From a virus: a stretch of 26,724 nucleotides of DNA. The notes beneath the pieces are model-generated. The model searched no databases, had not been told where the DNA came from, and saw only the letters and a program-made list of their open reading frames with translations. Each line of letters opens with the position of its first letter. Positions within the stretch are counted from its first letter, which is position 1. The position numbers and the translations under genes were made by a program. Below, piece by piece: positions 628-22,377 of this stretch. The DNA is taken from positions 1-26,724 of IMG/VR virus record IMGVR_UViG_3300030060_002953; one strand, 5' to 3'.

Positions 628-2058
628 ATGAATTATAAATTTAAAACAAAGCCTTACGAGCATCAAATGACTGCTTTAGAAAAGTCATGGAACAAAGAAA
701 ACTTTGCTTACTTTATGGAGATGGGCACAGGCAAAACAAAAGTGTTAATTGATAACATGGCCATGTTGTATGACAAAGGTAAAATAGATGGCGCATTAAT
801 TATTGCACCAAAAGGTGTTGTAAAAACTTGGTACGAACAGGAGCTTCCCACACACTTACCAAACCACATAGAGAATGTGACCGTATTATGGCAATCAAAT
901 ATTACAAAAGGACAACAAGAAAAACTAGAAAGTTTATTTGAAATAGAAACAGCTCTACATATTTTAATTATGAATGTTGAAGCGTTGTCTACAGATAAAG
1001 GTGTTAAGTTTGCATCTAAATTTTTAAACTCACACAAAATATTGATGGCAGTTGACGAGTCTACAACTATAAAAACACCCACTGCAAAAAGAACTAAAAA
1101 TATTATAGGGCTTGGAAAACATTCTAAATATAGAAGAATAATGACTGGGTCTCCAGTTACTAAAAATCCATTAGATTTATATTCTCAATGTGAGTTTTTA
1201 AATCCTTATCTTTTAGATTTTACTTCTTATTATGCATTTCGTAATAGATATGCAGAGATGAAAACTATGCATTTACGTGGCAGGTCAATACAGGTTGTAG
1301 ATGAATTTAAAAACCTTGCTGAGTTATCAGACACCGTAAAAAAATTTTCTGAAAGAATTTTAAAACAAGATTGTTTAGATTTACCACCTAAAAATTTTAC
1401 AAAAAGACACATAACCCTTTCTAGTGAACAAAAGAAAGCATACGATCAAATGAAAAAAGCAGCCATGGCTGTACTAAATGGTAAAGTTACGACTACCATG
1501 ACCGTGTTGACTCAACTAATGAGACTGCATCAAATAACTTGTGGTCATTTTACAGCTGATGATGGCAGTACACAACTAATACCAAACAATAGAATTACAG
1601 AATTGATGAACATATTAGAAGAGACTGAAGGTAAAGCAATCATTTGGGCTAACTATCAGAAAGATATGACACAAATTTTAGATAATATTAGTAAAGAATA
1701 TGGTCCGGGATCCGTGGTTGATTATTATGGTTTAACACCACAAGAAGACAGACAAGAGAATATACGTAAATTTCAGTCCGACCCTAAGTGCCGGTTTCTT
1801 GTTGGAACGCCTTCTACGGGCGGCTATGGGATAACTTTGACGGCTGCAAACACCGTAATTTACTATTCTAACGGATATGACCTAGAGAAGCGTTTACAAT
1901 CAGAGGACAGAGCGCACCGTATTGGACAGAAAAAAAATGTAACTTACATAGATATTATATGTGAAGATACGGTTGACGAAAAAATTGTAAAAGCATTACG
2001 AGATAAAATTAATATTGCATCTGAAGTATTAGGAGAGGAGCTAAAAGCATGGATATAA
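628..2058 (+). CDS. SNF2-family (superfamily 2) DNA helicase / translocase
   Basis: A 476-aa ATP-dependent DNA translocase of the SNF2 type. Visible motifs in order: Q-motif-like KPYEHQ at residues 8-13; Walker A MGTGKT at 32-37; motif II DEST at 143-146 in place of the more usual DEAH or DESH; motif III MTGSP at 172-176; a helicase C domain from about 320; GTPSTGGYGITLT near 393-405; and the diagnostic motif VI QSEDRAHRIGQKK at 424-436. At this length it is little more than the two RecA-like lobes, as in small phage homologues used in replication or recombination. A nuclease or target-recognition domain is not seen. It is the first of two plus-strand genes and its last ten bases overlap a 2OG oxygenase gene. 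Family call firm; biological role uncertain. Confidence 0.93.
   Translation: MNYKFKTKPYEHQMTALEKSWNKENFAYFMEMGTGKTKVLIDNMAMLYDKGKIDGALIIAPKGVVKTWYEQELPTHLPNHIENVTVLWQSNITKGQQEKLESLFEIETALHILIMNVEALSTDKGVKFASKFLNSHKILMAVDESTTIKTPTAKRTKNIIGLGKHSKYRRIMTGSPVTKNPLDLYSQCEFLNPYLLDFTSYYAFRNRYAEMKTMHLRGRSIQVVDEFKNLAELSDTVKKFSERILKQDCLDLPPKNFTKRHITLSSEQKKAYDQMKKAAMAVLNGKVTTTMTVLTQLMRLHQITCGHFTADDGSTQLIPNNRITELMNILEETEGKAIIWANYQKDMTQILDNISKEYGPGSVVDYYGLTPQEDRQENIRKFQSDPKCRFLVGTPSTGGYGITLTAANTVIYYSNGYDLEKRLQSEDRAHRIGQKKNVTYIDIICEDTVDEKIVKALRDKINIASEVLGEELKAWI
2036..2040 (+). promoter_or_regulatory. Shine-Dalgarno for the oxygenase at 2049, inside the helicase gene
   Basis: AGGAG lies eight bases before the ATG at 2049, within the last codons of the helicase gene. 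It fixes the oxygenase start and supports translational coupling of the pair. Confidence 0.6.
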
Positions 2059-2558
2059 CCACACCATTTAAAATAGAATTTATAACGATAAAAACTAAAA
2101 ATTTTGCAAAGAAGAAAAAATTAATAATTAAAGAACTTAAAAAACACCCGGAAGAAAGACAAAGAAGTTTTAGTAGTAATAGAGGCAGTGGTAAATTATC
2201 TCGTCCTTTTTCTAAAATTTTTGGTGAAGAACTAAGTCAAATTTCTTTTCATGGTATAACGATTACAGATACTTGGTCCGTGACTTACGACAAAGGGGAT
2301 TTTCATGTCCCACACAATCATGGCTCGGTAGGATACGCAGGTATTTTATATTTAGATTTTCATAAAAATTCACCAAGAACAACATATATACAACCTTGGA
2401 ATAATGAAAAAGATAAAAGTTTGTTATATACACCTGATGTTAAAGCTGGTGATATGATTATAGTTCCTAAATTTATACTTCACTATAGTGAAACAAATCT
2501 TCTTTCTTTTAAAAAAAGAATTATATCTTTTGATTTTTTAACAGGTTATCAACGTTAA
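2049..2558 (+). CDS. 2OG-Fe(II) oxygenase-like protein coupled to the SNF2 helicase
   Basis: A 169-aa double-stranded beta-helix protein resembling the small putative 2OG-Fe(II) oxygenase family (2OG-FeII_Oxy_5 type). The core reads HVPHNHG at 86-92, then GILYLDF at 98-104, GDMIIVP at 134-140, a distal His in FILHYSE (H145), and a basic residue in KKRIISFDF (R157) where 2-oxoglutarate is normally held. The proximal motif is H-x-H (H89, H91), not the textbook H-x-D. The N-terminal 50 residues are rich in Lys and Arg. The start overlaps the helicase stop by ten bases. It lies about 11.7 kb from the main oxygenase array and on the opposite strand. Its substrate is unknown: protein, nucleotide base or small molecule are all possible. 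Confidence 0.8.
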   Translation: MDITTPFKIEFITIKTKNFAKKKKLIIKELKKHPEERQRSFSSNRGSGKLSRPFSKIFGEELSQISFHGITITDTWSVTYDKGDFHVPHNHGSVGYAGILYLDFHKNSPRTTYIQPWNNEKDKSLLYTPDVKAGDMIIVPKFILHYSETNLLSFKKRIISFDFLTGYQR

Positions 2559-3031: not shown

Positions 3032-3204
3032 GCTATGTCTGTTAATAAAACTAATAATACGGCTCCCATACCACCGACTATCCAATATTCTAATCTTTTA
3101 ATTCTATCTTGCATTTCTTTAATTTGTTCAAACGTCTGCTTTTGCATTATTCTGCAAAGCTTCTCATGAGATTCTATTTTTTGTAGTGCCGATTTTCTCG
3201 CCAT
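3028..3204 (-). CDS. Small holin-like membrane protein (58 aa, XhlA-like layout)
   Basis: A short gene, ATG at 3204 to TGA at 3030-3028, encoding a protein that begins MARKSALQKIESHEKLC. Residues 1-39 form a charged, heptad-like helix (EQIKEMQDRIKRLEY). Residues 41-58, WIVGGMGAVLLVLLTDIA, form one hydrophobic transmembrane segment ending almost at the C-terminus. A cytoplasmic helix followed by a C-terminal membrane segment is the arrangement of XhlA-type phage holins or lysis accessory proteins. Position supports this: its stop overlaps the endolysin start as ATGA, and its own start shares one base with the stop of the preceding 1403-codon gene (TAATG). Exact holin class is unproven. Confidence 0.8.
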   Translation of the reverse strand: MARKSALQKIESHEKLCRIMQKQTFEQIKEMQDRIKRLEYWIVGGMGAVLLVLLTDIA

Positions 3205-11777: not shown

Positions 11778-11941
11778 TAATTTAAAAAGAAGTTTTGTGC
11801 TTCTACCTCTTGTTTTAATTCTTCTTGAAACGTTGTATTTAATTTTTGCACTATACCATCAAGATCTCTAACTTGTGCTTCTGCCGTACCTAAATCATAC
11901 TCCTCACTTGGTCTTGTTAATACTTGTACTATCTTTGCCAT
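11777..11941 (-). CDS. Small helical phage protein (54 aa)
   Basis: ATG at 11941 to TAA at 11779-11777, encoding a protein that starts MAKIVQVLTRPSEEYDLG and ends QEVEAQNFFLN. From about residue 20 it is an acidic amphipathic helix (AQVRDLDGIVQKLNTTFQEE), so it may form a coiled coil. Both ends are fused to neighbours by TAATG junctions: its start with the stop of the gp10-like gene, its stop with the start of the 113-aa gene. Function unknown. Position among tail genes suggests a minor structural or chaperone role. Confidence 0.7.
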   Translation of the reverse strand: MAKIVQVLTRPSEEYDLGTAEAQVRDLDGIVQKLNTTFQEELKQEVEAQNFFLN

Positions 11942-14151
11942 TATCTTCTTCCATCCGGTTGTATGTCTAATCTAAAAGCTCCTAATTTCCAACTTTGACT
12001 AGCGCCTGTATTTTCTACTTTTAATGATATGGCTCTTGCTCTAGCACGTGTGTCTATTTTTTTAGTGCTTGAAGTTATATCAAATGGTCCAAGAGATGAA
12101 CTAGCAGATGTGTCGTTTGGAAAATCTCTTAAACCTAATGTAATTCTAGTAGTTCCAGTTTGAGATATAAAGTCAGGTATGAATCTTCTTATCTTCATTA
12201 AGAACTCACCGTCACCTCTAAGATCAGCCATACCAGTTGATTGTCCTGTGATACCTCTTCTTTGACTAATATCATAATCTCCAGATAATATGTTTGCGGT
12301 TATTGCAGTAATAGTTCCATTTCTATTTTGATCAGTTCCTGTTTCGTGTTCATAATAAGAAGTTCTACCCTCTGTGTTTCCTACAACATCGTGAGATGTA
12401 TCAGTAGACGCATCATACTCTAAAGCATGTGGAACTCCAAATACTGCGGAGTCTCTCCACATTGTTCTAGCAAGAGAACCTACCGTCCAAACAGGTCTTT
12501 GTGGTGACGAGTCAAAATAATTGTATGCAACCATTTTATTTACAACTTGTGAATTTAACGATGGATAAAACCAAATAACTTCACCAAACAAATTATTTAA
12601 TCCTGCAGATATCATTTGGTTACCGGAGTTTATATTTATATCATTGTAAACGTGGTCCTCTACCAAACATGGTAATGACTCTAGTTTACCAGCGTATCTA
12701 AAAAAACCATTTTCTGACATCCAATACGCAGCACCATCAACTTCTACGCATGCGTTTTGTCCTGTTAATCCGCAGTTAGTTCCAACTTGTGCAAAAGCAA
12801 AAGTTAAAGGTTGTCCAACAAAACGTTGTGTAAATAATGCTGTATCAGTCCAGACAAGAATAGAATCTCTACCACGAATCGCTCCTCTGATCTGTGATCC
12901 GTCGGCCAGTCTTTGTGTACCGGCTGTATTAGTTGCCGTAGGTGTATATGTATTTATATCTTCTTGATCCGAGAATCTAATAAACATATCATCTTGTGTT
13001 GCTTTGTTTCCGATAGTTGTTTCTGTTCCAAAGAATACTAAGTGACGATCCGGAGTAGATACAACCATGTGTCTTGATGCCGTTGGTGCACCTGATATAA
13101 TAGTTGCTCTTGTACTTGTTGCTGCAGCAATAGAAGAGTCCCATTGAAATACTTCACCATCGTGAATTAAACAAATTGCTTTGTCACCAAAATTATCTAG
13201 TGACCACATACCAGGTTCTAATACTAAGTCACCTGATGCAGCTTCACCCCAAGCAACATAGTCAGAACTATTTTTTACTGATGCTCCATCACTATGCGCT
13301 GATCTAGTTGAGTTTCTAACTCCTCTTGTAATACCTGTTAGAGTAGTTCCACCTGTAATACCAGTGTAAGATATTTCTTCATTACCAACTTGAATAAAAT
13401 TAGTTCCAGAGTCTGGAAACTGTGTAGCGTCTGCTAAAACAATAGATGTGCCTGAACCACCTGTCCCTGCTGTATCATTTAATAATGCTCCATTTAAAGT
13501 TGTTGTGACTGGGTTAGAAGCCTCTCCACCCCAAGATCCTAAACCCCAACCAAAACCTTTTTCTTGAACAGCAGATCCTACAGGATAATAATGTTGAACT
13601 CTTATGCCTCCTGATGTTGTGGCACCAGCTCCTGTTTCATTTGACGGCATCGTTATTTTAATTTGTGTATTATTAGGGACACTTGTCACCATAAATTTTT
13701 TGTTATCAAAATCTGATGCACCAAAATTAGATCCTGTTATTGCAGTAAAATTATCTAATAAAACAATATCTTGTGGATTAATATTGTGACCACTAGAAAA
13801 ATTTATTGTAACAACAGCTGATCCGTTGTCCGTGCTAAATGCATTTGTAAGCGTTGTTGTAGTTTTAATAGGGTGTATGTCATAAAATACACCACCAGAG
13901 AAAGCATATAATATTCTGTTAGTGCCGATGATAGCATATCTTCTACCTAAACTATTGATAAAATGATGAAGACCACGTCCAGCTCCTGTGAGCTCGTTTT
14001 CGTTTAGGGTGCCTAATTGGTTCCAACCACCCATTTTTTCTGGAATACCATACCTAAATCTAACATTATCACAATCGATCCATTGGCCCTCTGCTTGGGT
14101 TGCTGTGACTTGTTTATTAATACCTGGTTGAAATCCGATTTTCTGTAGCAT
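11941..14151 (-). CDS. P22 gp10-like packaged-DNA stabilisation / tail nozzle protein
   Basis: A 736-aa protein resembling the phage stabilisation family (P22 gp10), the tail component beyond the adaptor in podoviruses and comparable in role to the T7 gp12 nozzle. Near the N-terminus are KIGFQPGINKQ and then WIDCDNVRFRYGIPEKMGGW, typical of the family. The body is beta-propeller-like, with repeated short strands, conserved Trp/Gly (GFGWGLGSWGG) and HLVFFGTE-type blades. A middle region with TQFPDSGTNFIQVGNEEISY looks like an inserted beta domain. The frame is open to a TTG three codons upstream (14160); ATG at 14151 is preferred. It follows a non-coding gap of about 110 nt that may carry its own promoter. 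Confidence 0.82.
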   Translation of the reverse strand: MLQKIGFQPGINKQVTATQAEGQWIDCDNVRFRYGIPEKMGGWNQLGTLNENELTGAGRGLHHFINSLGRRYAIIGTNRILYAFSGGVFYDIHPIKTTTTLTNAFSTDNGSAVVTINFSSGHNINPQDIVLLDNFTAITGSNFGASDFDNKKFMVTSVPNNTQIKITMPSNETGAGATTSGGIRVQHYYPVGSAVQEKGFGWGLGSWGGEASNPVTTTLNGALLNDTAGTGGSGTSIVLADATQFPDSGTNFIQVGNEEISYTGITGGTTLTGITRGVRNSTRSAHSDGASVKNSSDYVAWGEAASGDLVLEPGMWSLDNFGDKAICLIHDGEVFQWDSSIAAATSTRATIISGAPTASRHMVVSTPDRHLVFFGTETTIGNKATQDDMFIRFSDQEDINTYTPTATNTAGTQRLADGSQIRGAIRGRDSILVWTDTALFTQRFVGQPLTFAFAQVGTNCGLTGQNACVEVDGAAYWMSENGFFRYAGKLESLPCLVEDHVYNDININSGNQMISAGLNNLFGEVIWFYPSLNSQVVNKMVAYNYFDSSPQRPVWTVGSLARTMWRDSAVFGVPHALEYDASTDTSHDVVGNTEGRTSYYEHETGTDQNRNGTITAITANILSGDYDISQRRGITGQSTGMADLRGDGEFLMKIRRFIPDFISQTGTTRITLGLRDFPNDTSASSSLGPFDITSSTKKIDTRARARAISLKVENTGASQSWKLGAFRLDIQPDGRR

Positions 14152-14260
14152 AACATGCAATTATACAGCAAATATTATAAAAATATACCTCTTTTTACTT
14201 CCAATTTATGTTGATATTAAACCTAGCCTGTTGGTCTGTGCAGAAAATTATCTATAATCT
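14152..14260 (-). other. Non-coding gap between oxygenase array and late tail genes, weak promoter candidate
   Basis: This is the largest gene-free stretch in the minus-strand late region, where most other junctions overlap. On the minus strand it carries two TATAAT hexamers (rc of 14175-14180 and 14162-14167) and a TTGGAA about 19 bases before the first. That spacing is poor, so promoter activity is only a suggestion. I see no clear stem-loop terminator with a T tract. No RNA gene is recognised. Confidence 0.3.
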
Positions 14261-14824
14261 TCATGCTCTTAAAATTCGTAAAAAATCATCATGCACATAG
14301 TCTGCATTAAAATTAAATGATATAATTGTTTTTCTTTTTTTAGTTTGAGAAGGGGGTGCTCTGTGTATAAACATACTTGGAAATATAATAACATCTCCTT
14401 GCTTTACATCCACATCGATAATTTTTAAAGATAAAGGCTCTACTATTTGAGTCTTAGGAGAGTTCTTTCCAAACTCTAAATAGTATACACCTGTAAAGTT
14501 ATGTCCATGAACATGCCAACCATGTGTATCTCCTTTGCCATATTGTTGAAACCACAACTCAAAAATTTGCACCTGTGATAAACCTATCTTTTTTATTTCT
14601 TCTGTAAAATGTTTTTGTAAATGAGGACCCACTAATTTAACCCATTCTCTTTCGGTGTCGTGTCTTCTATCCCAATCTACTCTTGAAATGCTATCCGTAA
14701 AATAATCATCATCTTGTTTTAAACAACCTGATTTTTGTTTATTTATTAACTCTAATAATTCTTTCTTTATTTTAGAGTTTTCTTTAAGTTTATTTTTTAA
14801 GATAGGAAAATTAAAAGATATCAT
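14261..14824 (-). CDS. 2OG-Fe(II) oxygenase-like protein, array member 1 (H-x-H type, 187 aa)
   Basis: Small putative 2OG-Fe(II) oxygenase of the 2OG-FeII_Oxy_5 type. The N-terminal 75 residues are helical and charged. The core holds WFQQYGKGDTHGWHVHGH at 91-108, TGVYYLEF at 111-118, GDVIIFP at 143-149, distal His in MFIHRAPP (H154), and basic residues in KKRKTIISF (162-170) for 2-oxoglutarate. Three His alternate (H104, H106, H108) where H-x-D is expected, so the iron ligands cannot be fixed from sequence. It is the last gene of the array and starts within the preceding stop (ATGA). Confidence 0.82.
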   Translation of the reverse strand: MISFNFPILKNKLKENSKIKKELLELINKQKSGCLKQDDDYFTDSISRVDWDRRHDTEREWVKLVGPHLQKHFTEEIKKIGLSQVQIFELWFQQYGKGDTHGWHVHGHNFTGVYYLEFGKNSPKTQIVEPLSLKIIDVDVKQGDVIIFPSMFIHRAPPSQTKKRKTIISFNFNADYVHDDFLRILRA

Positions 14825-15438
14825 TTTCTAAACCATGCAGGTAATCCTAAATGTGGACGTCTATCAAACATGTTGTCTTTTGATCCTGGAGTTTTACGAT
14901 TATTATAGTGTAAAAATACTTGTACACATTCTTTGCCCTTAAACTTTTCTCTCCAATGTTCTAGCTCACATCCTCTGTAAACTAACATATCTCCTTGTTT
15001 TAAATCTACTCTAATGCCTTTTTTGTTAGTCTCTCCTGATGGCTCTAAATAGATTGGCCAAGGGTCACCACCAAGATTCATAGTAGTAGATATTTCACAG
15101 CTAAATCTATCTTTATGTCTTTTTAATTTATCACCCGGTTTATATATTCTAGCGTAAGTATAAGCTGGATATAATTTTAATCCTGTTACTTTTTCCATAT
15201 CTGGCTGACATTTTAACATTAAAGTTTCCATAGCAATGTTGGCATATTGAGAATATGTGTTTGGTATTTGTGTATCACTATAGTCTCCTAACATAATTTC
15301 AAAAGGCGATATGTATTTTGCTTTTATACAGGTATCATAAACTTGTTTTTGCATATAAAAATAATTTGCAATAAAAGCTGCTAAGTCTTTTGATATTGCT
15401 TGTCTAATAACTGCGTATTTATTTTTTTTAAAACTCAT
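14821..15438 (-). CDS. 2OG-Fe(II) oxygenase, array member 2 (canonical H-x-D, 205 aa)
   Basis: The most orthodox member by motif. YARIYKPGDKLKRHKDRFSC at 95-114 gives proximal H108 and D110. EISTTMNLGG follows, and WPIYLEP forms the next strand. The second half has LKQGDMLVYRGCELEHW, with distal H161, and a strand VQVFLHYN near 172-179. The 2-oxoglutarate-binding basic residue is probably one of the Lys at 165-169, not an Arg. Close relatives with RHKDRxSCEIS are, to my knowledge, common in marine phages including cyanophages. The N-terminal 90 residues are a family-specific cap. Joined to both neighbours by ATGA overlaps. Confidence 0.9.
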   Translation of the reverse strand: MSFKKNKYAVIRQAISKDLAAFIANYFYMQKQVYDTCIKAKYISPFEIMLGDYSDTQIPNTYSQYANIAMETLMLKCQPDMEKVTGLKLYPAYTYARIYKPGDKLKRHKDRFSCEISTTMNLGGDPWPIYLEPSGETNKKGIRVDLKQGDMLVYRGCELEHWREKFKGKECVQVFLHYNNRKTPGSKDNMFDRRPHLGLPAWFRK

Positions 15439-15884
15439 ATTACATCAAAGGCTATTGTATATCTTTTTATTTTTTTAGAAGTAAGAGGTATTGAATGTTT
15501 TTGCAAATTGTCAAACTTCAATAAACTATTCTCTACTCCTTTTGTATGTTTTATTACATCATAAAATTCTGAAGATTCAAGAAAAATAGTGCCATCCCCA
15601 GTTGGGTTATGTAAATAATAAACAAATGAATATTTACAATCAGGATGATTGTGCCAACATATTATGTTTCCTACAGAACACACACCCCAACATTTATGTA
15701 TTTGATATGGTTTTATATATTTTTGTACTGACTCTACAAAAGGTTTCATTTCAGATCTTAAATGCATATTATTTGGTGTTTGTAAACAAGGATAACTTCC
15801 ACCTAAATCCTCTACCTCTTCTTTAATAAATTTAAAAATTTTTTTCTTATCTTTTTCTTTTAAGATGTTTTTATATATTTTCAT
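15435..15884 (-). CDS. 2OG-Fe(II) oxygenase-like protein, array member 3 (H-x-H type, 149 aa)
   Basis: One of the shortest members, close to the minimal double-stranded beta-helix. ICWHNHPDCKYSFVYYL at 75-91 holds H78 and H80 with D82 four residues after the first His. GDGTIFLES follows, then LLKFDNLQKHSIP with distal H130 and KRYTIAFDV with R141. Lys-rich N-terminus (KEKDKKKIFKFIKEE). The spacing leaves open whether H78/H80 or H78/D82 are the metal ligands. Start and stop both sit in ATGA overlaps, suggesting it is read by ribosomes that have just finished member 4. Confidence 0.8.
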   Translation of the reverse strand: MKIYKNILKEKDKKKIFKFIKEEVEDLGGSYPCLQTPNNMHLRSEMKPFVESVQKYIKPYQIHKCWGVCSVGNIICWHNHPDCKYSFVYYLHNPTGDGTIFLESSEFYDVIKHTKGVENSLLKFDNLQKHSIPLTSKKIKRYTIAFDVI

Positions 15885-16453
15885 ATAAGCCTATACCATC
15901 CTGTAGCTATTATTTTTTCTTTATCAACTATCTGACCTTTGTGAGTATGTGTCCAGTCTGGAGGCCAAATTATAGTTAAACCTTTTTTTGCAGGTGTGGT
16001 TAAGTTTTGATATTTGAAATGAGTCCCTCCGTTTTCTACATCGTTTAAATATGTCATGAAAACTAAAACTCTGTAAAAATTAGCTTGTTCTCCTCTCTCG
16101 TAATGCCACTTTTTAAAACCACCATTTTTAGGGTACCACTGAATATTAAAATTTTCAATATCAAATCTAGGAAGCCAATTTATTTCAGGATACTCTTTTA
16201 CATATAAATTTAAAGCTTCTTGTAAAAAATATCTATATGCACCAATACCTTTTTCAAAGTTATCATATCGTACATCTAAATCTATTGACTCTTTATTTTG
16301 ATTATCAACTGTTTCTTTTCCCATGTCTAAACAAGTTCCTTTATTAGTTAAATGTTTATTTCTGTTAAAATAATCAACCATTCCATCACAAACTTCTTCT
16401 GGCATATACCACCCTCTAATAAAACTATCTTTAGGAAACTCGTGCTTTTTCAT
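15881..16453 (-). CDS. 2OG-Fe(II) oxygenase, array member 4 (H-x-E, 190 aa)
   Basis: A prolyl-4-hydroxylase-like enzyme with an H-Y-E proximal motif. IQWYPKNGGFKKWHYERG at 104-121 gives H117 and E119. LVFMTYLNDVENGGTHF is the conserved strand-turn, and IIWPPDWTHTHKG (161-173) contributes the distal His (H169 or H171), with Lys180 a candidate for 2-oxoglutarate. Glu replacing Asp in the facial triad is found in some active members of the superfamily, so activity is plausible. The start overlaps member 5 by 23 bases and has one of the few good Shine-Dalgarnos in the array (AGGAG at 16464-16460, six bases before ATG). Confidence 0.88.
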   Translation of the reverse strand: MKKHEFPKDSFIRGWYMPEEVCDGMVDYFNRNKHLTNKGTCLDMGKETVDNQNKESIDLDVRYDNFEKGIGAYRYFLQEALNLYVKEYPEINWLPRFDIENFNIQWYPKNGGFKKWHYERGEQANFYRVLVFMTYLNDVENGGTHFKYQNLTTPAKKGLTIIWPPDWTHTHKGQIVDKEKIIATGWYRLI

Positions 16454-16895
16454 CTACAGCTCCTACTAAAATTTGTTTATCTTTGTTAGACATCTCTGCT
16501 CTATGTAATACATTAGAATCAAAAAAAATTAATTTACCTAATTCAGGAGTTACTCTTTTGTTTACAGGTTTTTTAAAAATAGTGTCCCCATCAGAGTCAT
16601 TTAAATATAATATAAAAGAATACTTTTCTGTTTTTTCATGATTATGTTCTGTTTGATATCCATTTTTATAATATCTAATATAGTGTATCCAAAATATTTT
16701 TTTGTAAAAATTATCAAAAGGTAATATTTTTTTTAACATATCCTGATTAAAAATACTTACTATGTTAGGTGTTTGAAAACCATTTTTAGTGTGAGAAATG
16801 TCACTAATATTTTTATAGTCATGTTTTTGTAATATAGATATAATCTCTTTAACTGTTTTTTTAGGTATATTTGTTTCTTTAAACAAGGTTTCCAC
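16431..16895 (-). CDS. 2OG-Fe(II) oxygenase-like protein, array member 5 (H-x-H type, GTG start, 154 aa)
   Basis: Core motif IHYIRYYKNGYQTEHNHE at 70-87, with H84, H86 and E87. Then SFILYLNDSDGDTIF, GKLIFFDSNVLHRAEM with distal H131, and DKQILVGAV with Lys138/Lys140 in place of the usual Arg. The YLNDSDGDT turn is like that of prolyl-4-hydroxylase-type enzymes, while the H-x-H is like members 1, 3, 6 and 7. The only suitable start is GTG at 16895, 17 bases inside the preceding gene, giving METLFKETNIPKKTV. The N-terminal half is helical and Lys-rich. Substrate unknown. Confidence 0.8.
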   Translation of the reverse strand: METLFKETNIPKKTVKEIISILQKHDYKNISDISHTKNGFQTPNIVSIFNQDMLKKILPFDNFYKKIFWIHYIRYYKNGYQTEHNHEKTEKYSFILYLNDSDGDTIFKKPVNKRVTPELGKLIFFDSNVLHRAEMSNKDKQILVGAVDEKARVS

Positions 16896-17364
16896 TCACT
16901 ATTAATCTGTTATTATTTTTATTAGGTCTTACTTCATGTGGCATATATCCAGGAAATAATAATAATGTGCCTGGTATAAATTCAAAATCTTTAGGTTTGT
17001 TTATATCTACATAAGGATAACCCACATCATAAAAAGATATAGGAGAAGAATTTTTATCGCCTTCAATAAACCAAACAAATGATTTGTGTTTAGGGTGATG
17101 TGTGTGAATTGAATGATGACCATATTTTAAATATCGTTGAACCCAACAATGATTTAATTTTAAATTAAAATGTTTTAAAATAGGATCTAATTTTTTAATT
17201 ACTAACTTATCTAAACTTTCATGTATATCATAGAAAGACGTATGATTCATTCCTGGAATTTTTTCGTCATCTTTAAGTTTAATTTTTTTAATTAATTTTT
17301 TACTTGCAGCATCTACTTTAATATAATCTTGAAATATGGTGTATGTAAAAGAATGACTAAGCAT
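16879..17364 (-). CDS. 2OG-Fe(II) oxygenase-like protein, array member 6 (H-x-H type, 161 aa)
   Basis: WVQRYLKYGHHSIHTHHPKH lies at 74-93, very His-rich, with H87 and H89 in the position of H-x-D. FVWFIEGDKNSSPISF follows, then FIPGTLLLFPGYMPHEVRP (129-147) with distal H143, and NNRLIVSGN with R153. The two-strand spacing is that of the 2OG-FeII_Oxy_5 group. The N-terminus MLSHSFTYTIFQDYIKVD is family-specific. The start lies eight bases inside member 7, and its 3' end contains the GTG start of member 5. Confidence 0.8.
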   Translation of the reverse strand: MLSHSFTYTIFQDYIKVDAASKKLIKKIKLKDDEKIPGMNHTSFYDIHESLDKLVIKKLDPILKHFNLKLNHCWVQRYLKYGHHSIHTHHPKHKSFVWFIEGDKNSSPISFYDVGYPYVDINKPKDFEFIPGTLLLFPGYMPHEVRPNKNNNRLIVSGNLV

Positions 17365-17986
17365 TTTTTGCCATTCCTTTTGGCACAGCTTGTATGTTCC
17401 AATGTATAAATCTAAAAGGTTCTATGCCATAATCTACAGCAAATTCATGTTCTAAATAGCCTGGAAACATTATCAATACTCCTGGTTGCACTCTAAATTG
17501 AACTAGTTCAGTTCCATATGTAACATCTGATGTTTTTTTTACTTTTAATTTAGTGGCTCTAGCGCCAGTCCTTGGCTCATGAAAAATAGGATATGATGTT
17601 TTATCACTAGCTTTAAGAAAATAAAAACCTGATACGTGTTGATTCCAATGCACATGTGCAGAATGATTACCACCACCCTTTTTAGCAAACTCTTGTACCC
17701 ACATTTCACTAAACATTGTTTGATATTCTGACATATCATAACCTTGCCAATCTAAAAAATCCCAAGACTTTTGACCTATGTAATTTCTAAAATCTAAAAA
17801 ATCATTATCTAATGTAAGAGGAGTTGAATGATAAGATACTCCAAAATCACCATGTTGTTTTATATGATCTTTTTGTCTAGCTTTAGCTTCTTTAATATAT
17901 TTATCAGAAGCTTTATTTAAAGTTTTTACAAACTCTGGTTTGTTTTCCACACATATTGGAGTTTTAAAATATTCGTTTACTTCCAT
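17357..17986 (-). CDS. 2OG-Fe(II) oxygenase-like protein, array member 7 (H-x-H type, 209 aa)
   Basis: Begins MEVNEYFKTPICVENKPEF. The frame is open 23 codons further upstream, but ATG at 17986 leaves only a ten-base overlap with member 8 and gives the N-terminus expected of this group. The core has MWVQEFAKKGGGNHSAHVHW at 95-114 (H111, H113), HVSGFYFLKAS, VQPGVLIMFPGYLEHEF (166-182, distal H180) and PFRFIHWNI with R192. WVQEF...H.H....SG.Y.L is the signature pattern of the 2OG-FeII_Oxy_5 type. It shares the FPGY(M/L)xHE element with member 6, hinting that the two arose by duplication. Confidence 0.84.
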   Translation of the reverse strand: MEVNEYFKTPICVENKPEFVKTLNKASDKYIKEAKARQKDHIKQHGDFGVSYHSTPLTLDNDFLDFRNYIGQKSWDFLDWQGYDMSEYQTMFSEMWVQEFAKKGGGNHSAHVHWNQHVSGFYFLKASDKTSYPIFHEPRTGARATKLKVKKTSDVTYGTELVQFRVQPGVLIMFPGYLEHEFAVDYGIEPFRFIHWNIQAVPKGMAKNA

Positions 17987-18615
17987 GGCTGCCCAAGATT
18001 CCACATAACTAATGAATACCTTGTCCCTGCAGTTACTGGTTTTACCCTGTGCCACACGTGACTAGGAAATACAATAATAGATCCTTTAGGTAATATTTCT
18101 TTACATTGTATTCTGTGTATAGATTCATCTCTCATGTTTGGTTCATAATCTCTAAAATCAAATTCTAACTCTCCACCTTGATATTCAGAGCCATCTGTTA
18201 ATTGGCAGGTCATAGAAATTTTTCTTATCTTACCGAATTGAAGATTATTTTTTGGATTATTGTAAGATTCTTTCCAACTATCACAATGCCAATCGTAATA
18301 TTGATTAAGTTTGTATTTTGTAAATTGTATTTGTTCACTAAAATCCCATTCAAAATTCCAACCAGCTCTTTGATTAGCAATTCTAATGTAGGGTTGTAAC
18401 TCTTTATATATCCAAGTTTCATCTAACCACACTATGTCTGATTTTCTTTTTCTTTGCATATTAAATATTTGATCTTGAGATAAGGTTTTTTTAGCATCAT
18501 AGCCTCCTGTTCTTGCCATAGATTCAGATTTAGATAATGCATATTTGATTATGTCATCACATAATTTAGGTGGTAATGCAGATGTAAAATACCAATAATA
18601 ATGTTTTAAATTCAT
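17977..18615 (-). CDS. PKHD-type 2OG-Fe(II) hydroxylase, array member 8 (canonical H-x-D, 212 aa)
   Basis: Related to PKHD-type (PiuC/prolyl-4-hydroxylase-like) hydroxylases. IQFTKYKLNQYYDWHCDSW at 96-114 gives H110 and D112. RKISMTCQLTDGSEYQGGEL is the usual strand with a GGEL turn, FDFR follows, and LPKGSIIVFPSHVWHRVKPV supplies distal H189, with R199 in TRYSLVMWN for 2-oxoglutarate. The whole facial triad and the basic residue are present, making this one of the best candidates for an active enzyme. Its ATG lies in the stop of member 9 (ATGA), and its last ten bases overlap member 7. Confidence 0.9.
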   Translation of the reverse strand: MNLKHYYWYFTSALPPKLCDDIIKYALSKSESMARTGGYDAKKTLSQDQIFNMQRKRKSDIVWLDETWIYKELQPYIRIANQRAGWNFEWDFSEQIQFTKYKLNQYYDWHCDSWKESYNNPKNNLQFGKIRKISMTCQLTDGSEYQGGELEFDFRDYEPNMRDESIHRIQCKEILPKGSIIVFPSHVWHRVKPVTAGTRYSLVMWNLGQPWK

Positions 18616-19184
18616 ACAAAAGTAAAAACTCCTATTCTTCTTAGCTGATCGTGTTTACAAAATCCAAAGCTATGAAAGTGTAATCCATCACACATCATGA
18701 CTTTACCTCTCTCAGGTTTTATTCTTTTTAACACTTTAAGTTTTTTTACTCTAGGTGACTCAATGTCTATGACTACTTTACCTTTGGTATATTTTTTATC
18801 AAAGATTATAGTGTCTCCTGAAGTATCCTCTAAGTATATTATAAGTAGTTTATGTTTAAATGTAAAATCTACGTGAGGACAGACAAAAGAATATTTACTA
18901 TTAGACATACTAAAATTAAGAGCAGCCCTTGTAAATCTAGTAAAAGAAACATTATGTTGTTTGCAAAACCTTTTAATTACTCCTTCAAAGAGATAATAAT
19001 ACTTAGAGTTAGGCATTGGCTCTTCACCATTATCACATCTTTTAACTAAAGTGTGGGTTACCATCGGAAATATTCTACGCCCTAAATAACTATCAAAATG
19101 ATACCACGGAAAAGTATTTTGTAAAATTTCATTGTCGATAATTTTAAATTCTTCTTTGTTTAAGAAGTTTTTAGATATAATCAT
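18612..19184 (-). CDS. 2OG-Fe(II) oxygenase, array member 9 (H-x-D, 190 aa)
   Basis: NFSMSNSKYSFVCPHVDFTF at 90-109 places H104-V-D106 as the proximal pair. HKLLIIYLEDTSGDTIIFD is the conserved strand-turn, and RGKVMMCDGLHFHSFGFC (159-176) gives the distal His (H171 most likely), followed by LRRIGVFTFV with R182/R183. It resembles prolyl-4-hydroxylase-type phage enzymes that contain an inserted strand between YLEDTSGDT and the second His (about 131-155). It begins 14 bases inside member 10. Confidence 0.85.
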   Translation of the reverse strand: MIISKNFLNKEEFKIIDNEILQNTFPWYHFDSYLGRRIFPMVTHTLVKRCDNGEEPMPNSKYYYLFEGVIKRFCKQHNVSFTRFTRAALNFSMSNSKYSFVCPHVDFTFKHKLLIIYLEDTSGDTIIFDKKYTKGKVVIDIESPRVKKLKVLKRIKPERGKVMMCDGLHFHSFGFCKHDQLRRIGVFTFV

Positions 19185-19674
19185 AACTTATGAATTGAAC
19201 AAAATTTATTAATTCTTTCTGATTATTTTCTATACGATAATGATTAGTTGAGGGAAACATAATAAATTGATTATTAGTAAGTGATATATCCCAACTTCTG
19301 CCCTTTCTTCTATTATCATCATAGTAAATTCTAACATTACAATCTACAGCGTTAACACCATATAACAAAATAAAATCAGGAGAGTCTTTTAAATCTACAG
19401 GATCTACCTCTGTTTTAAAATCTGTTTTATCATTAGGAAGATACATCTTACCCCAAGTTTTTTTATTAATTAATATTAAATTATGTTTAACACGTATGTG
19501 CTCTATAATGTATTTATTGAGCCTATCCCAATTTCTAGAAAAAGGTGTGTCCTCACCTTTGTAAGTGCTTTCAAAAATTGTTTTTGACATTTCAAAAGGA
19601 TCTATATCATATCCTATAGGCATCTTAACATCGCCAAAATATATCGCTTGTTCACTTAATACTTTCTTTTGCAT
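19171..19674 (-). CDS. Degenerate 2OG oxygenase-like protein, array member 10 (167 aa, lacks proximal His)
   Basis: The first gene of the array as transcribed. The second half follows the oxygenase pattern: ILLYGVN at 102-108 stands where others have the YL strand, and SLTNNQFIMFPSTNHYRIEN (131-150) contains a distal His (H145) preceded by the usual FP turn. LINFVQFISYD is the last strand. In the place of H-x-D is TEVDP (88-92), so the first His is missing. A Lys (K153) may replace Arg. It could be an inactive pseudo-enzyme acting as a binding or regulatory subunit, or simply a related cupin fold. The family call is less secure than for the other nine. A 28-base AT-rich gap separates it from the Trp-rich protein gene. 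Confidence 0.55.
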   Translation of the reverse strand: MQKKVLSEQAIYFGDVKMPIGYDIDPFEMSKTIFESTYKGEDTPFSRNWDRLNKYIIEHIRVKHNLILINKKTWGKMYLPNDKTDFKTEVDPVDLKDSPDFILLYGVNAVDCNVRIYYDDNRRKGRSWDISLTNNQFIMFPSTNHYRIENNQKELINFVQFISYDYI

Positions 19675-19679
19675 ATCTA

Positions 19680-19704
19680 TATATGTTTTTAAAACTTATA
19701 TATT
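19680..19704. repeat. AT-rich imperfect palindrome before the oxygenase array
   Basis: Within the short gap between the Trp-rich protein gene and array member 10, TATGTTTT / AAAACTTATA flank a single T, forming an imperfect inverted repeat about 25 bases long. It could be a weak hairpin or part of an AT-rich promoter. Stability is likely low because the arms hold a single G-C pair, and no T tract after a G-C stem suggests a terminator. Confidence 0.3.
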
Positions 19705-20170
19705 ATGCTTGTAAATCTGTCAATACCCAACCAGTTGTATTATCTGCTTGGTAAGCAGACTCGTCCCATGTGTATTCCCAAAAATTAGTAACAGCCTCGT
19801 TTTGTGCTTGTTGTTCTGCTGTTAATGCAGGAGGATCACCTAAAGGTGATTTCCAAGATGCAGTTGCAATATCTTTTACCCAAGAATTAAAAATTTTTTT
19901 AGGCCAGAAGATTTGATTATCTTCGTCCCAAGTATAACCTATACATGCATAATTTCCTCTATAAGGTGTGCCACCTAATTTATGTGTATTTTCAATTGTG
20001 TTGTACGAAGTTTTTTTCCAAAGTTGTTGTGGCCAACCATGACATCTTTCTAACCAGTATTGACCTTCAGCTTCAGTTTCAACACCATCTTTATTTGTAG
20101 TGTGTTCATCAGCAACAACGTGAACGTTTAAAACTATATTCTCTTCTGATATTTTTGCAAAGTGTGCCAT
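19703..20170 (-). CDS. Trp-rich fibre-associated structural protein (155 aa)
   Basis: Begins MAHFAKISEENIVLNVHVV, the recognisable N-terminus of a small structural protein found beside tail-fibre genes in many marine phages including cyanophages. Diagnostic pieces follow: WKKTSYNTIEN, GNYACIGYTWDEDNQIFWP, NSWVKDIATASWKSPLGDPP and, near the end, FWEYTWDESAYQAD. Repeated aromatic/Gly/Asp-containing units suggest a beta-rich protein that packs on a fibre or collar. Role in the virion is inferred from association only. It starts just after the Gly-rich protein stop and is the last gene before the oxygenase array. Confidence 0.72.
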   Translation of the reverse strand: MAHFAKISEENIVLNVHVVADEHTTNKDGVETEAEGQYWLERCHGWPQQLWKKTSYNTIENTHKLGGTPYRGNYACIGYTWDEDNQIFWPKKIFNSWVKDIATASWKSPLGDPPALTAEQQAQNEAVTNFWEYTWDESAYQADNTTGWVLTDLQA

Positions 20171-20172
20171 AA

Positions 20173-21120
20173 TTAATTTTGAAATTTATACCTCACTACA
20201 ACGATTCCACTACCACCGCTGACTCCAGATGAAGAAGGTAATCCTCTTCCACCTCCGCCGCCACCAGTATTAGCTGTTCCAGCTGTTCCCGCAATAGGAG
20301 AGTTAATTCTATTTCCACCTCGGCCTCCGCCTCCGTTTCCACCATTTCCACCTGGATCTCCTGTAAGGTCAGCGCCTCCGCCACCTCCACCAGCATATTG
20401 AAAACAATTAGCACCTTTACCAGAAGATGCTGAATTTGGAACAATATTAACCTGAGCACCATTTCCTGCAGTTTTAGTACTAGCATTTGCAGAGGCTCCG
20501 CCTCCGCCAGCACCAGTTAAGTTTGGTCCTGTTCCTCCATTATTACCTTGTGGAGGACTTACTGGAGGGACATTACCTTGTCCAGCTGTATTATTTAATC
20601 TTCCTGCTCCACCACCAGAGCCACCATCTGCGCCAGCAGAAGTGCTTGGGTCAGCGCCGTTACCACCGCCACCACCAGCAGATGTTATTGACGCAAAAAT
20701 TGAATTTCCTCCATTAGCACCACCAGGATTTGGAGTTGTTCCTCCACCTCCTCCGCCAGCACCAACGGTAATTGGCATTGCTCCTAATGTTACAGCTTGT
20801 CCGCAAACACAACCACCTAATGGGTTTGGTACGGTATAACAACCAGAGGCTGTCCCAGAAGATATTCTAAATCCTCCTCCGCCGCCTCCGCCGCCGGTCC
20901 CTTGAGCTCCTCCGCCGCCTCCAGCAACAACTAAATAGTCTGCTTTATTTGAACCAGCTGCTCTTCCTTTAGAAGTTACACAAAGGTTTCCGTCTCCTGT
21001 AAAAATATGAATTTTATGATCTCCGTCAGTAACGGTTTCATTACCACCGGTTGCTTCGATGTAAGCGGGTCCTGCGCAACCTGACCCAAAGCCTAATATT
21101 CTATATCCAAAACCTGCCAT
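20173..21120 (-). CDS. Glycine-rich tail-fibre / adhesin-type protein (315 aa)
   Basis: The N-terminus MAGFGYRILGFGSGC and the domain around IHIFTGDGNLCVTSKG, then ADYLVVAGGGGGAQG, belong to the glycine-rich domain seen in phage tail fibres and adhesins. From about residue 68 on, the protein is mostly poly-Gly loops broken by short hydrophobic or Ser/Asn/Pro steps. It ends with SGIVVVRYKFQN, the usual closing strand. Such regions resemble glycine-rich tips of adhesins that form polyglycine II bundles and bind receptors. Six or so Cys are present, unusual for a fibre. Shine-Dalgarno AAGGAG (21131-21126), five bases before ATG, overlaps the preceding stop. Confidence 0.78.
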   Translation of the reverse strand: MAGFGYRILGFGSGCAGPAYIEATGGNETVTDGDHKIHIFTGDGNLCVTSKGRAAGSNKADYLVVAGGGGGAQGTGGGGGGGGFRISSGTASGCYTVPNPLGGCVCGQAVTLGAMPITVGAGGGGGGTTPNPGGANGGNSIFASITSAGGGGGNGADPSTSAGADGGSGGGAGRLNNTAGQGNVPPVSPPQGNNGGTGPNLTGAGGGGASANASTKTAGNGAQVNIVPNSASSGKGANCFQYAGGGGGGADLTGDPGGNGGNGGGGRGGNRINSPIAGTAGTANTGGGGGGRGLPSSSGVSGGSGIVVVRYKFQN

Positions 21121-21129
21121 CTATTCTCC

Positions 21130-22365
21130 TTATAGATCGTTAGCAGCGTCAGTAGTAAAGAATAATTTAATTCCAAGCAGTCTAGCATCTGCGTTTAAAT
21201 CATCTGCTGATACATCTCTTGATATTTGAAAGAACACCTGTTCATCATCACCAGGTGACCCTGCAATAGTTACTGCTCCACTTTCATTTGCTACGTCTAA
21301 ATCGTTTGATGTTCCACTATGTGCTTTTGCTGTTGCAACAACTTGTGTTCCAAAAGCTGTGTTACAAGAATCATTGTCAGCAAGCGCTACACCTGATAAT
21401 CCCCATGCAGTCGTTCCTGTGTCAGTTGATGTTGCTGTGAAAAAAGCTTGAAAAGTTACGGTGCCTGCATTCCATGATTTAGGAAATGCTACAGAAAATT
21501 GTGCAAACTCATCTGAGTCTTTGTCAAAATCTAAAACTTTTATTTCAGGACCATTTGATAGTTCTACTTGTGCAGCTTCTGCACCATTTGTAGTATTAGG
21601 ATACATTGAAACTGCTGGCACCCATATAGTTTCTCTACCTGCAATTCTAACTGCAGATACGTTTCCACCTGAATCTTCAGCTTTAATTACACCAGATCCT
21701 TTTGTTTTAAGGTCAATACCAATATTAGTGTCACCACCTGATGCTGTAACTGATGGATTATTTCCTGTTGCAGCATTTGCATATGTGACTTCATTAACAG
21801 CTGAACTTGTAGCTGTTAAAGTAATTAATTCATTTCCGTTTGTATCTTTAATATTTGTTCCAATTACAGGAGAAGTTAAAGTTTTGTTTGTTAAAGTTTC
21901 AGTTCCTGTAAGTGTAACGTCTCCAGAACCAAATCCTAAAGTAATTATATCTGGATTAGTTCCATCATTAGCTGATGCAAATACTAATTGATCACCTTTG
22001 TCTGTTGCTGAGAAAGTAAACGAGTCTCCTGATCCAGTTGCATATTTAAACTGAACCGTGTGAGATCCTGAAGTTGAATTTCTTAAAAAATAAAATGTTT
22101 GAACATCGTTTGGTATAGTTACAATTTGATTTCCAGATATTGTACCTGTAAATTCAATCATCCTGTGACCTGCAGCATCACCAGTTCCAGAATCTGAAAT
22201 ACTTAAAGTTGTAGTTTGAGCTCCACCACCAATTGCTTGTTGTGTAAAACCACCAGATATTTGTTCAATAAGTTGTAAATTAGTATTAGTTTTTGTCCCC
22301 CATGTACCGGCGTTTTCACCGGTTTGCTGAAGTTCTACTCCTAAAGGTGTAAATGTTGATGCCAT
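21130..22365 (-). CDS. Tail fibre protein (411 aa)
   Basis: Begins MASTFTPLGVELQQTGENAG with TWGTKTNTNLQLIEQISGG at 21-39, a shared N-terminal domain of marine phage fibre proteins, probably the attachment part. Residues 50-150 are beta strands of a shaft-like type, and TETLTNKTLTSPVIGT (155-170) is a widespread fibre motif. The C-terminal 175 residues, from ETIWVPAVSMYP through QFSVAFPKSWNAGTVTFQ to ADARLLGIKLFFTT, look like a separate globular beta-sandwich domain, likely the distal or receptor-facing end. Shine-Dalgarno TAGGAGA (22380-22374) overlaps the preceding stop codon. Confidence 0.83.
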   Translation of the reverse strand: MASTFTPLGVELQQTGENAGTWGTKTNTNLQLIEQISGGFTQQAIGGGAQTTTLSISDSGTGDAAGHRMIEFTGTISGNQIVTIPNDVQTFYFLRNSTSGSHTVQFKYATGSGDSFTFSATDKGDQLVFASANDGTNPDIITLGFGSGDVTLTGTETLTNKTLTSPVIGTNIKDTNGNELITLTATSSAVNEVTYANAATGNNPSVTASGGDTNIGIDLKTKGSGVIKAEDSGGNVSAVRIAGRETIWVPAVSMYPNTTNGAEAAQVELSNGPEIKVLDFDKDSDEFAQFSVAFPKSWNAGTVTFQAFFTATSTDTGTTAWGLSGVALADNDSCNTAFGTQVVATAKAHSGTSNDLDVANESGAVTIAGSPGDDEQVFFQISRDVSADDLNADARLLGIKLFFTTDAANDL

Positions 22366-22377
22366 GTTTTTTTTCTC

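What the first reader, a model, noticed from the sequence alone, without database searches (positions are those of the whole stretch)
14261..19674. Array of ten consecutive oxygenase-like genes beside the tail-fibre genes
Ten adjacent minus-strand genes all show the 2OG-Fe(II) oxygenase strand pattern (one degenerate), with an eleventh at 2049-2558. Phages, especially cyanomyoviruses, are known to carry several 2OG oxygenases, but so many side by side, each joined to the next by an ATGA or short overlap, is unusual. They differ from each other in length (149-212 aa), cap region and metal motif, so this is not a simple recent tandem duplication. Their place between the fibre and tail-nozzle genes suggests late expression and action on virion proteins or on the dying host. 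One idea is a set of hydroxylases, each for a different site or protein.
Basis: partly seen in the sequence, partly recalled or inferred. Interest (0 to 1): 0.85.

Follow-up and report, generated by a model that had tools for sequence, protein, structure and literature searches.

The report
Ten-oxygenase operon beside phage adhesin
A virus that probably infects the ocean bacterium SAR11 carries ten side-by-side genes of one enzyme fold that adds oxygen to other molecules; the set travels with the gene for the tip that grips the host, so it may chemically decorate that tip, but what it acts on has never been tested.

Summary
Ten overlapping minus-strand genes (14261-19674) all belong to the double-stranded beta-helix (DSBH) 2OG-Fe(II) oxygenase superfamily; nine keep metal ligands, and one (19171-19674) keeps the fold but has no conserved ligand. 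An eleventh lies at 2049-2558. The window is an HTVC023P-type (SAR11) podovirus fragment. Related contigs carry 0-11 such genes in a row; this clade has the most, on six further contigs. The genes are old and divergent, under purifying selection, and exchanged gene by gene.

New here: (1) the pelagiphage/cyanophage "ferrochelatase" (phrog_2954; window 14821-15438), reported as an iron-metabolism partner of phage oxygenases, is itself an oxygenase of this fold with an invariant HxD...H triad; (2) the array has a fixed-order core (metal-less member - g8 - g7 - ... - g2) into which other oxygenases are inserted; (3) the core evolves as a cassette with a glycine-rich, gp38-like adhesin and its partner gene, largely independent of the adjacent nozzle gene.

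Most likely the enzymes modify the adhesin/fibre tip or its partner during assembly (about 0.45). Modification of host proteins is the main rival. Long arrays exist in cultured cyanophages (S-CREM1: nine consecutive), so this is a new variant of a known kind.

The parts
20173..21120 (-). Glycine-rich adhesin-like protein (phrog_2295, PF21722 Gly_rich_2): candidate receptor-binding tip and candidate substrate
   Evidence: Pfam 1.6e-15, phrog_2295 1.4e-46; same gene family upstream in S-SM1, S-RSM4, HTVC033P, next to the HTVC008M array
19703..20170 (-). 'MAHFA' protein (phrog_7759), adhesin partner or possible fibre chaperone; gene directly before the array; candidate substrate
   Evidence: phrog_7759 3.6e-31; directly upstream of g10 in 57 of 61 distinct loci
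19171..19674 (-). g10: metal-less DSBH protein (pseudo-oxygenase), core gene 1
   Evidence: AF2 pLDDT 88.7; Foldseek 3bvc TM 0.73, P4H, PHD2; no conserved His/Asp triad in 65 homologues; dN/dS 0.21-0.30
18612..19184 (-). g9: 2OG oxygenase, phrog_274 ('DNA endonuclease V' is a misnomer), HxD...H
   Evidence: phrog_274 8.3e-24; H104-x-D106...H171
17977..18615 (-). g8: 2OG oxygenase, PKHD-like, PF13640, HxD...H...R, core gene 2
   Evidence: PF13640 4.4e-14; NCBIfam PRK05467 3e-15; H110/D112/H189/R199 conserved in 113
17357..17986 (-). g7: 2OG oxygenase, PF13759/TIGR02466, HxH...H...R, core gene 3 (start chosen at 17986)
   Evidence: PF13759 9.8e-12; H134/H136/H203/R215 in longest-ORF numbering, conserved in 92
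16879..17364 (-). g6: 2OG oxygenase, PF13759, HxH...H...R
   Evidence: PF13759 1.3e-7; H87/H89/H143/R153
16431..16895 (-). g5: 2OG oxygenase, HxH...H
   Evidence: PF13640 3.4e-5; phrog_274 1.3e-10; H84/H86/H131
15881..16453 (-). g4: 2OG oxygenase, PF13640, HxE...H...K
   Evidence: PF13640 3.9e-8; H117/E119/H171/K180
15435..15884 (-). g3: 2OG oxygenase, PF13759-like, HxH...H...R
   Evidence: PF13759 3e-4; phrog_81 4e-12; H78/H80/H130/R141
14821..15438 (-). g2: phrog_2954 'ferrochelatase', in fact a DSBH 2OG-type oxygenase, core gene 4
   Evidence: AF2 pLDDT 95.3; best PDB match prolyl-4-hydroxylase 4j25/4iw3; H108/D110/H161 invariant in 45; no Pfam ferrochelatase match in 45 members
14261..14824 (-). 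g1: 2OG oxygenase, PF13759, HxH...H...K
   Evidence: PF13759 2.1e-11; H104/H106/H154/K165
2049..2558 (+). g0: eleventh 2OG oxygenase, separate from the array, next to the helicase gene
   Evidence: phrog_81 2.9e-23; H89/H91/H145/K156
11941..14160 (-). Tail nozzle / stabilization protein, downstream border of the array
   Evidence: phrog_3287 4.4e-94; homologous to HTVC023P and HTVC027P proteins

Best explanation
The ten genes form one operon (overlapping genes, so probably translationally coupled) of DSBH oxygenase-fold proteins that belongs to the phage's receptor-binding cassette. Nine have metal ligands and are probably active; g10 is a metal-less paralogue that probably acts as a scaffold or partner. 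Expressed with the late genes, the enzymes probably hydroxylate (or otherwise oxidise) side chains of the glycine-rich adhesin, its fibre, or the adjacent MAHFA partner before virion assembly, tuning receptor binding or fibre folding. A core of g10, g8, g7 and g2 does the shared work; extra enzymes are gained and lost between phages. Shown: fold, metal sites, selection, fixed core order, co-inheritance with the adhesin genes. Inferred: enzymatic activity, late timing, the substrate, the role of g10.
For: Fold and sites. Core: of 62 distinct g10 loci with at least 2.5 kb downstream, g8 and g2 are present in 62 and g7 in 57, order g8<g7<g2 in 57 of 57; MAHFA directly upstream in 57 of 61 (partly ascertained by the g2/g10 queries). 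In 50 loci fetched by the nozzle gene alone: MAHFA with g8 in 31 of 32, against 3 of 18 without MAHFA (p=5e-9); glycine-rich adhesin with g10 in 12 of 14, against 0 of 36 (p=7.5e-10). On the nozzle tree g10 and adhesin change together in 6 of 6 independent pairs (p=0.03). Identity matrices: MAHFA-g2 r=0.65, MAHFA-g10 0.89, g2-g7 0.86, but MAHFA-nozzle 0.12, g2-nozzle 0.15, MAHFA-fib411 0.15. Same linkage in other phages: S-SM1, S-RSM4, S-CAM8, S-MS29, P-RSM4, HTVC008M, HTVC033P, a SAR11 single-cell contig and a Maricaulis-MAG contig, where g10 has moved to the far end. Closest solved folds include protein hydroxylases (P4H with EF-Tu, PHD2). A mass-spectrometric survey of S-SCSM1 virions names no oxygenase among 45 proteins although the genome has 24 (PMC9602691), as expected for enzymes that act and leave.
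Against: No substrate is known. Linked neighbours co-inherit for physical reasons, and the nozzle identities are range-restricted (77-93% to the window), which lowers correlations with it. Eight cultured phage records have MAHFA and a glycine-rich protein with no oxygenase nearby, so the adhesin does not need them. Two phrog_2954 homologues (Syn30, P-SSM7) sit among DNA-replication genes. The eleventh enzyme, g0, is away from the fibre genes. MAHFA/g8 reaches only p=0.06 with phylogeny taken into account (5 pairs).
Confidence: 0.45

Rival explanations
1. The enzymes hydroxylate host proteins (translation factors, ribosomal proteins, surface proteins) to take over the cell or block superinfection; sitting beside the adhesin reflects a recombination hot-spot.
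For: The best PDB matches of g2 are a prolyl hydroxylase, one entry solved with EF-Tu (4iw3). The adhesin region is a variable site where accessory genes accumulate. g0 and some phrog_2954 homologues lie elsewhere in the genome.
Against: A mere hot-spot does not explain the fixed core order or the gene-specific pairing g10/adhesin and g8/MAHFA, while g2 and g4 show no such pairing with MAHFA.
Confidence: 0.22
2. Auxiliary metabolic genes: they change host 2-oxoglutarate, nitrogen, iron or lipid metabolism, with 'ferrochelatase' supplying haem iron (published views, PMC3037559, PMC9599517, PMC11561400).
For: Published proposals; HTVC027P infection raises host iron-uptake transcripts (PMC12753301).
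Against: The 'ferrochelatase' is a DSBH oxygenase, not HemH, so the iron-supply part loses its basis. Ten divergent enzymes with different sites are not needed to consume 2-oxoglutarate. No other pathway enzyme is in the window array.
Confidence: 0.13
3. A small-molecule or peptide tailoring cluster that makes an oxidised product, or decorates host glycans/lipids at the receptor.
For: In several cyanophages the clusters also hold tryptophan halogenases (S-CREM1, S-RIM44) or a Nol-like carbamoyltransferase (S-CAM8, S-MS29, P-RSM4).
Against: None of these genes is in the window; no scaffold-forming enzyme is present.
Confidence: 0.1
4. DNA or nucleotide oxidation/repair (AlkB/TET-like).
For: Weak TET-like hit for g2 (E=0.07); two phrog_2954 homologues beside dam methylase and clamp-loader genes; phrog_274 carries the name 'DNA endonuclease V'.
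Against: No Tet_JBP or AlkB-type profile match for the ten at E<=1 in Pfam (PF13532 only weakly in 5 of 45 g2 relatives); location among structural genes; g9 has no endonuclease V profile match.
Confidence: 0.06

Closest known systems
Multiple 2OG-Fe(II) oxygenase genes of HTVC023P-type pelagiphages (Wittmers et al. 2022, PMC9599517)
   Same: Same phage group and gene families; eight non-orthologous oxygenases plus 'ferrochelatase' partners
   Different: Described there as near each other though not adjacent, and filed as metabolic genes; here ten are contiguous with a fixed-order core, and the 'ferrochelatase' is an oxygenase
Oxygenase clusters of T4-like cyanophages (S-CREM1 SCREM1_72-80; S-SM1 SSM1_051-061; S-SCSM1 with 24 genes)
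   Same: Long runs of divergent short 2OG oxygenases, often next to fibre, glycine-rich adhesin and MAHFA genes
   Different: Myoviruses; g10 was not found in cultured phages outside the HTVC023P-type group, only there and on two genome-collection contigs; some clusters have halogenase or carbamoyltransferase genes
Pseudomonas putida prolyl-4-hydroxylase (PDB 4j25, 4iw3) and PHD2
   Same: Fold of g2 and g10 models; protein-hydroxylase size
   Different: About 10-15% identity; substrate untested; g10 lacks metal ligands
PF13759/TIGR02466 proteins (PDB 2rg4, 3bvc)
   Same: g0, g1, g3, g6, g7 by sequence; g10 by fold
   Different: Function of these solved proteins is itself unknown; all array members fall under the TIGR02466 cut-off
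Pam3 gp24 glycine-rich fibre with chaperone gp25 (PMC9608196)
   Same: Glycine-rich tip protein with a small partner protein, as adhesin and MAHFA here
   Different: No oxygenase described in the passages read; no detectable sequence similarity of MAHFA to any solved chain

Membership tests
2OG-Fe(II) oxygenase superfamily | Double-stranded beta-helix fold | tested here: met
   AF2 plus Foldseek for the two hardest members, g2 and g10; profile matches for the other eight
2OG-Fe(II) oxygenase superfamily | HxD/E...H metal triad | tested here: inconclusive
   Met in g2, g4, g8, g9; HxH...H in g0, g1, g3, g5, g6, g7 (shared by their PF13759-like relatives here, ligands not tested); absent in g10
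2OG-Fe(II) oxygenase superfamily | Basic residue for the 2OG carboxylate about 10 residues after the last His | tested here: inconclusive
   R or K conserved in g0, g1, g3, g4, g6, g7, g8 and g9 (g9: three sequences only); not seen at that place in g2, g5, g10
2OG-Fe(II) oxygenase superfamily | Fe(II)/2OG-dependent activity | not testable with these tools
   Needs purified proteins
Ferrochelatase (HemH) for g2 / phrog_2954 | Ferrochelatase sequence profile | tested here: not met
   No Pfam ferrochelatase match in 45 members up to E=1; the family hit by most members is PF13532, a 2OG oxygenase, weakly
Ferrochelatase (HemH) for g2 / phrog_2954 | Ferrochelatase (chelatase) fold | tested here: not met
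   High-confidence DSBH model; the 50 best PDB matches listed are 2OG-type oxygenases
DNA endonuclease V (DenV) for g9 / phrog_274 | DenV sequence profile | tested here: not met
   No Pfam or NCBIfam endonuclease match; HxD...H conserved instead (three sequences)
Prolyl-4-hydroxylase | Hydroxylates a prolyl residue in a protein | not testable with these tools
   Fold similarity only
HTVC023P-type pelagiphage | Homologous nozzle and helicase genes in the same layout as HTVC023P and HTVC027P | tested here: met
   Nozzle 46-48% to HTVC023P, HTVC027P and 023Pt_psg01; helicase gene on the opposite strand at the same end; PolA is outside the window and was not tested

The most novel reading that the evidence does not exclude
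A combinatorial post-translational modification system for a phage receptor-binding tip: an exchangeable set of hydroxylases, organised by a metal-less paralogue, writes different oxidations on the adhesin or its partner, so that related phages change receptor chemistry by swapping enzymes rather than only fibre sequence.
Probability: 0.2. Interest if true: 0.88.

Novelty: new variant of a known kind. Interest (0 to 1): 0.62.

Why it matters
2OG oxygenases are among the most numerous accessory genes of very abundant ocean phages, and their role is unknown; published ideas put them in host metabolism, partly on the strength of a 'ferrochelatase' partner. Showing that this partner is another oxygenase removes that argument and affects earlier analyses that counted phrog_2954 as a ferrochelatase (for example PMC11561400). 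Tying the core set to the adhesin cassette gives a hypothesis that can be tested directly in cultured HTVC023P, which carries the four-gene core (gp64-gp67).

Tried and rejected
Recent tandem duplication: rejected (within-locus identity at most 45%). Assembly artefact: rejected (same array on six other contigs). g10 as a pseudogene: rejected (conserved, dN/dS 0.2-0.3). 'Ferrochelatase' and 'DNA endonuclease V' names: rejected. Oxygenases as virion structural proteins: unlikely in S-SCSM1. Solved relatives of MAHFA or of the glycine-rich protein by sequence: none. Promoter/terminator scan: no convincing internal site; promoter-like count about two standard deviations above shuffles in an AT-rich region. 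HTVC027P transcriptome paper: the passages read do not give the timing of its oxygenase genes. Literature search for an earlier correction of the phage ferrochelatase name: none found in the held library.
Full report
What is there. The window is nearly all of a 27,494-base virus record. Its nozzle protein is 46-48% identical to those of pelagiphages HTVC023P and HTVC027P and of phage 023Pt_psg01, and the helicase lies on the opposite strand at the same end as in those genomes. A related contig with the same gene order lies in a single-cell genome assigned to Pelagibacteraceae (AG-422-I02). So this is a fragment of an HTVC023P-type podovirus, most likely of SAR11.

The array. Between the fibre-region genes (19703-23478) and the nozzle gene (11941-14160) lie ten minus-strand genes. 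All nine junctions overlap. I call them g10 (first transcribed) to g1 (last). Seven match Pfam 2OG oxygenase models at E<1e-3, five over the curated cut-off. g9 and g2 match only PHROG families with misleading names, 'DNA endonuclease V' and 'ferrochelatase'. g10 matches nothing.

The hard members. I spent both structure predictions on g2 and g10, each with an alignment of relatives from IMG/VR. g2 (pLDDT 95) matches prolyl-4-hydroxylases and many other 2OG oxygenases (742 PDB chains at E<=1e-3), and H108, D110 and H161 are invariant in 45 sequences. It is not a ferrochelatase: no member matches that profile and the fold is different. g10 (pLDDT 89) is also a beta-helix protein, closest to 3bvc (TM 0.73) and then to prolyl hydroxylases, but none of the usual ligands is conserved in 65 homologues. 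It is a pseudo-oxygenase kept by selection (dN/dS 0.21-0.30).

Metal sites. g2, g8, g9 have HxD...H, g4 HxE...H, and g0, g1, g3, g5, g6, g7 HxH...H. A basic residue for 2OG is conserved in eight of the ten proteins (g0 included) that keep ligands. Whether the HxH group binds iron by three histidines was not tested.

Age and exchange. Within the window the best pair, g0/g1, is 35% identical; across all loci the most similar within-locus pair is 45%. At 35% identity the collected oxygenases fall into 95 single-linkage families. dN/dS is below 0.35 for the ten genes wherever divergence is enough to judge. Between the window and L088, dS is about 0-0.04 in g10, g9, g8, g7 and g1 but 0.49 in g6 and 0.29 in g5, whereas L028 shows the reverse for g5 and g6 (0.01): genes are exchanged piece by piece.

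How unusual. Among 80 related contigs fetched by the nozzle gene, the longest run is mostly 2-6 (range 0-11; many contigs are incomplete). The window's clade has 10-11, on six further distinct contigs. Cultured cyanophages show comparable runs: nine consecutive in S-CREM1 as annotated, about nine in S-SM1; S-SCSM1 has 24 genes in all (PMC9602691). The array is thus extreme for a podovirus, not unprecedented.

A core. Of 62 distinct g10 loci with enough sequence, g8 and g2 follow in 62 and g7 in 57, always in the order g8, g7, g2 where all are present; other oxygenases are inserted between or after them. In HTVC023P the core is gp64-gp67. These loci were partly found with g2 and g10 as queries, so the counts are biased upwards; the tests below use only loci found with the nozzle gene.

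The adhesin cassette. Directly before g10 lies a small protein (phrog_7759, 'MAHFA' after its first residues), and before that a glycine-rich protein of the kind that forms fibre tips (PF21722; compare Pam3 gp24, PMC9608196). In 50 nozzle-selected loci g8 is present in 31 of 32 with MAHFA and 3 of 18 without (p=5e-9); g10 in 12 of 14 with the glycine-rich gene and 0 of 36 without (p=7.5e-10). On the nozzle tree g10 and the glycine-rich gene change together in six of six independent pairs (p=0.03); MAHFA/g8 in four to five of five, too few for significance; MAHFA with g2 or g4 shows nothing. Identity matrices of the cassette genes agree with each other (r 0.47-0.89) and hardly with the adjoining nozzle (0.12-0.34) or the nearby fibre gene fib411 (0.15 with MAHFA, though 0.31-0.44 with g8 and g2). 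Nozzle identities span a narrow range, which weakens that comparison. The same grouping recurs in unrelated virions: T4-like cyanophages, the SAR11 myovirus HTVC008M, HTVC033P and a contig in a Maricaulis MAG. Eight cultured phage records have glycine-rich protein and MAHFA without oxygenases nearby, so the oxygenases are an optional addition to an adhesin module.

Function. I think it most likely that the enzymes oxidise residues of the adhesin, fibre or MAHFA during assembly (about 0.45). The evidence is association, similarity of fold to protein hydroxylases, and absence from the named virion proteins of S-SCSM1. The strongest points against are the lack of any known substrate, the eleventh gene away from the fibre genes, and two phrog_2954 homologues in replication regions. 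Host-protein modification is the main rival. The published iron/haem explanation loses its main support once the 'ferrochelatase' is recognised as an oxygenase.

Scores. New variant of a known kind; interest 0.62.

Noticed in passing
L212:336-8453 (S-CREM1), L216:804-8492 (S-RIM44), L199:3178-8884 (S-CAM8), L219:5626-11381 (P-RSM4): Cyanophage oxygenase clusters sit beside tryptophan halogenase genes or a Nol-like carbamoyltransferase, enzymes that could act on the same target.
   Followed up: partly
L213:7881-8480 (Syn30) and L218:8007-8579 (P-SSM7): phrog_2954 'ferrochelatase' homologues lie between a DNA methylase and a clamp-loader gene, not near fibre genes.
   Followed up: no
L210:1-5513: Contig binned with a Maricaulis MAG carries glycine-rich protein, MAHFA, g8, two others, g7, g2, a PF13759 type, then g10 at the far end: same set, different order.
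   Followed up: partly
L215:7983-9344: S-SCSM1 'ferrochelatase' gp124 is a 453-aa protein matching both the g2 and g4 profiles, i.e. apparently two fused oxygenase domains.
   Followed up: no
window 14160-14261 versus L028:4085-9956: Relatives have an eleventh array oxygenase between g1 and the nozzle gene that the window lacks.
   Followed up: partly
window 3204-7415: A 1403-aa protein between endolysin and tail genes has no PHROG match; by position probably an internal virion or ejection protein.
   Followed up: no
window 9589-11247: The 552-aa protein downstream of the nozzle gene is far more variable than the nozzle (mean 54% against 83% identity) with no correlation to it.
   Followed up: partly
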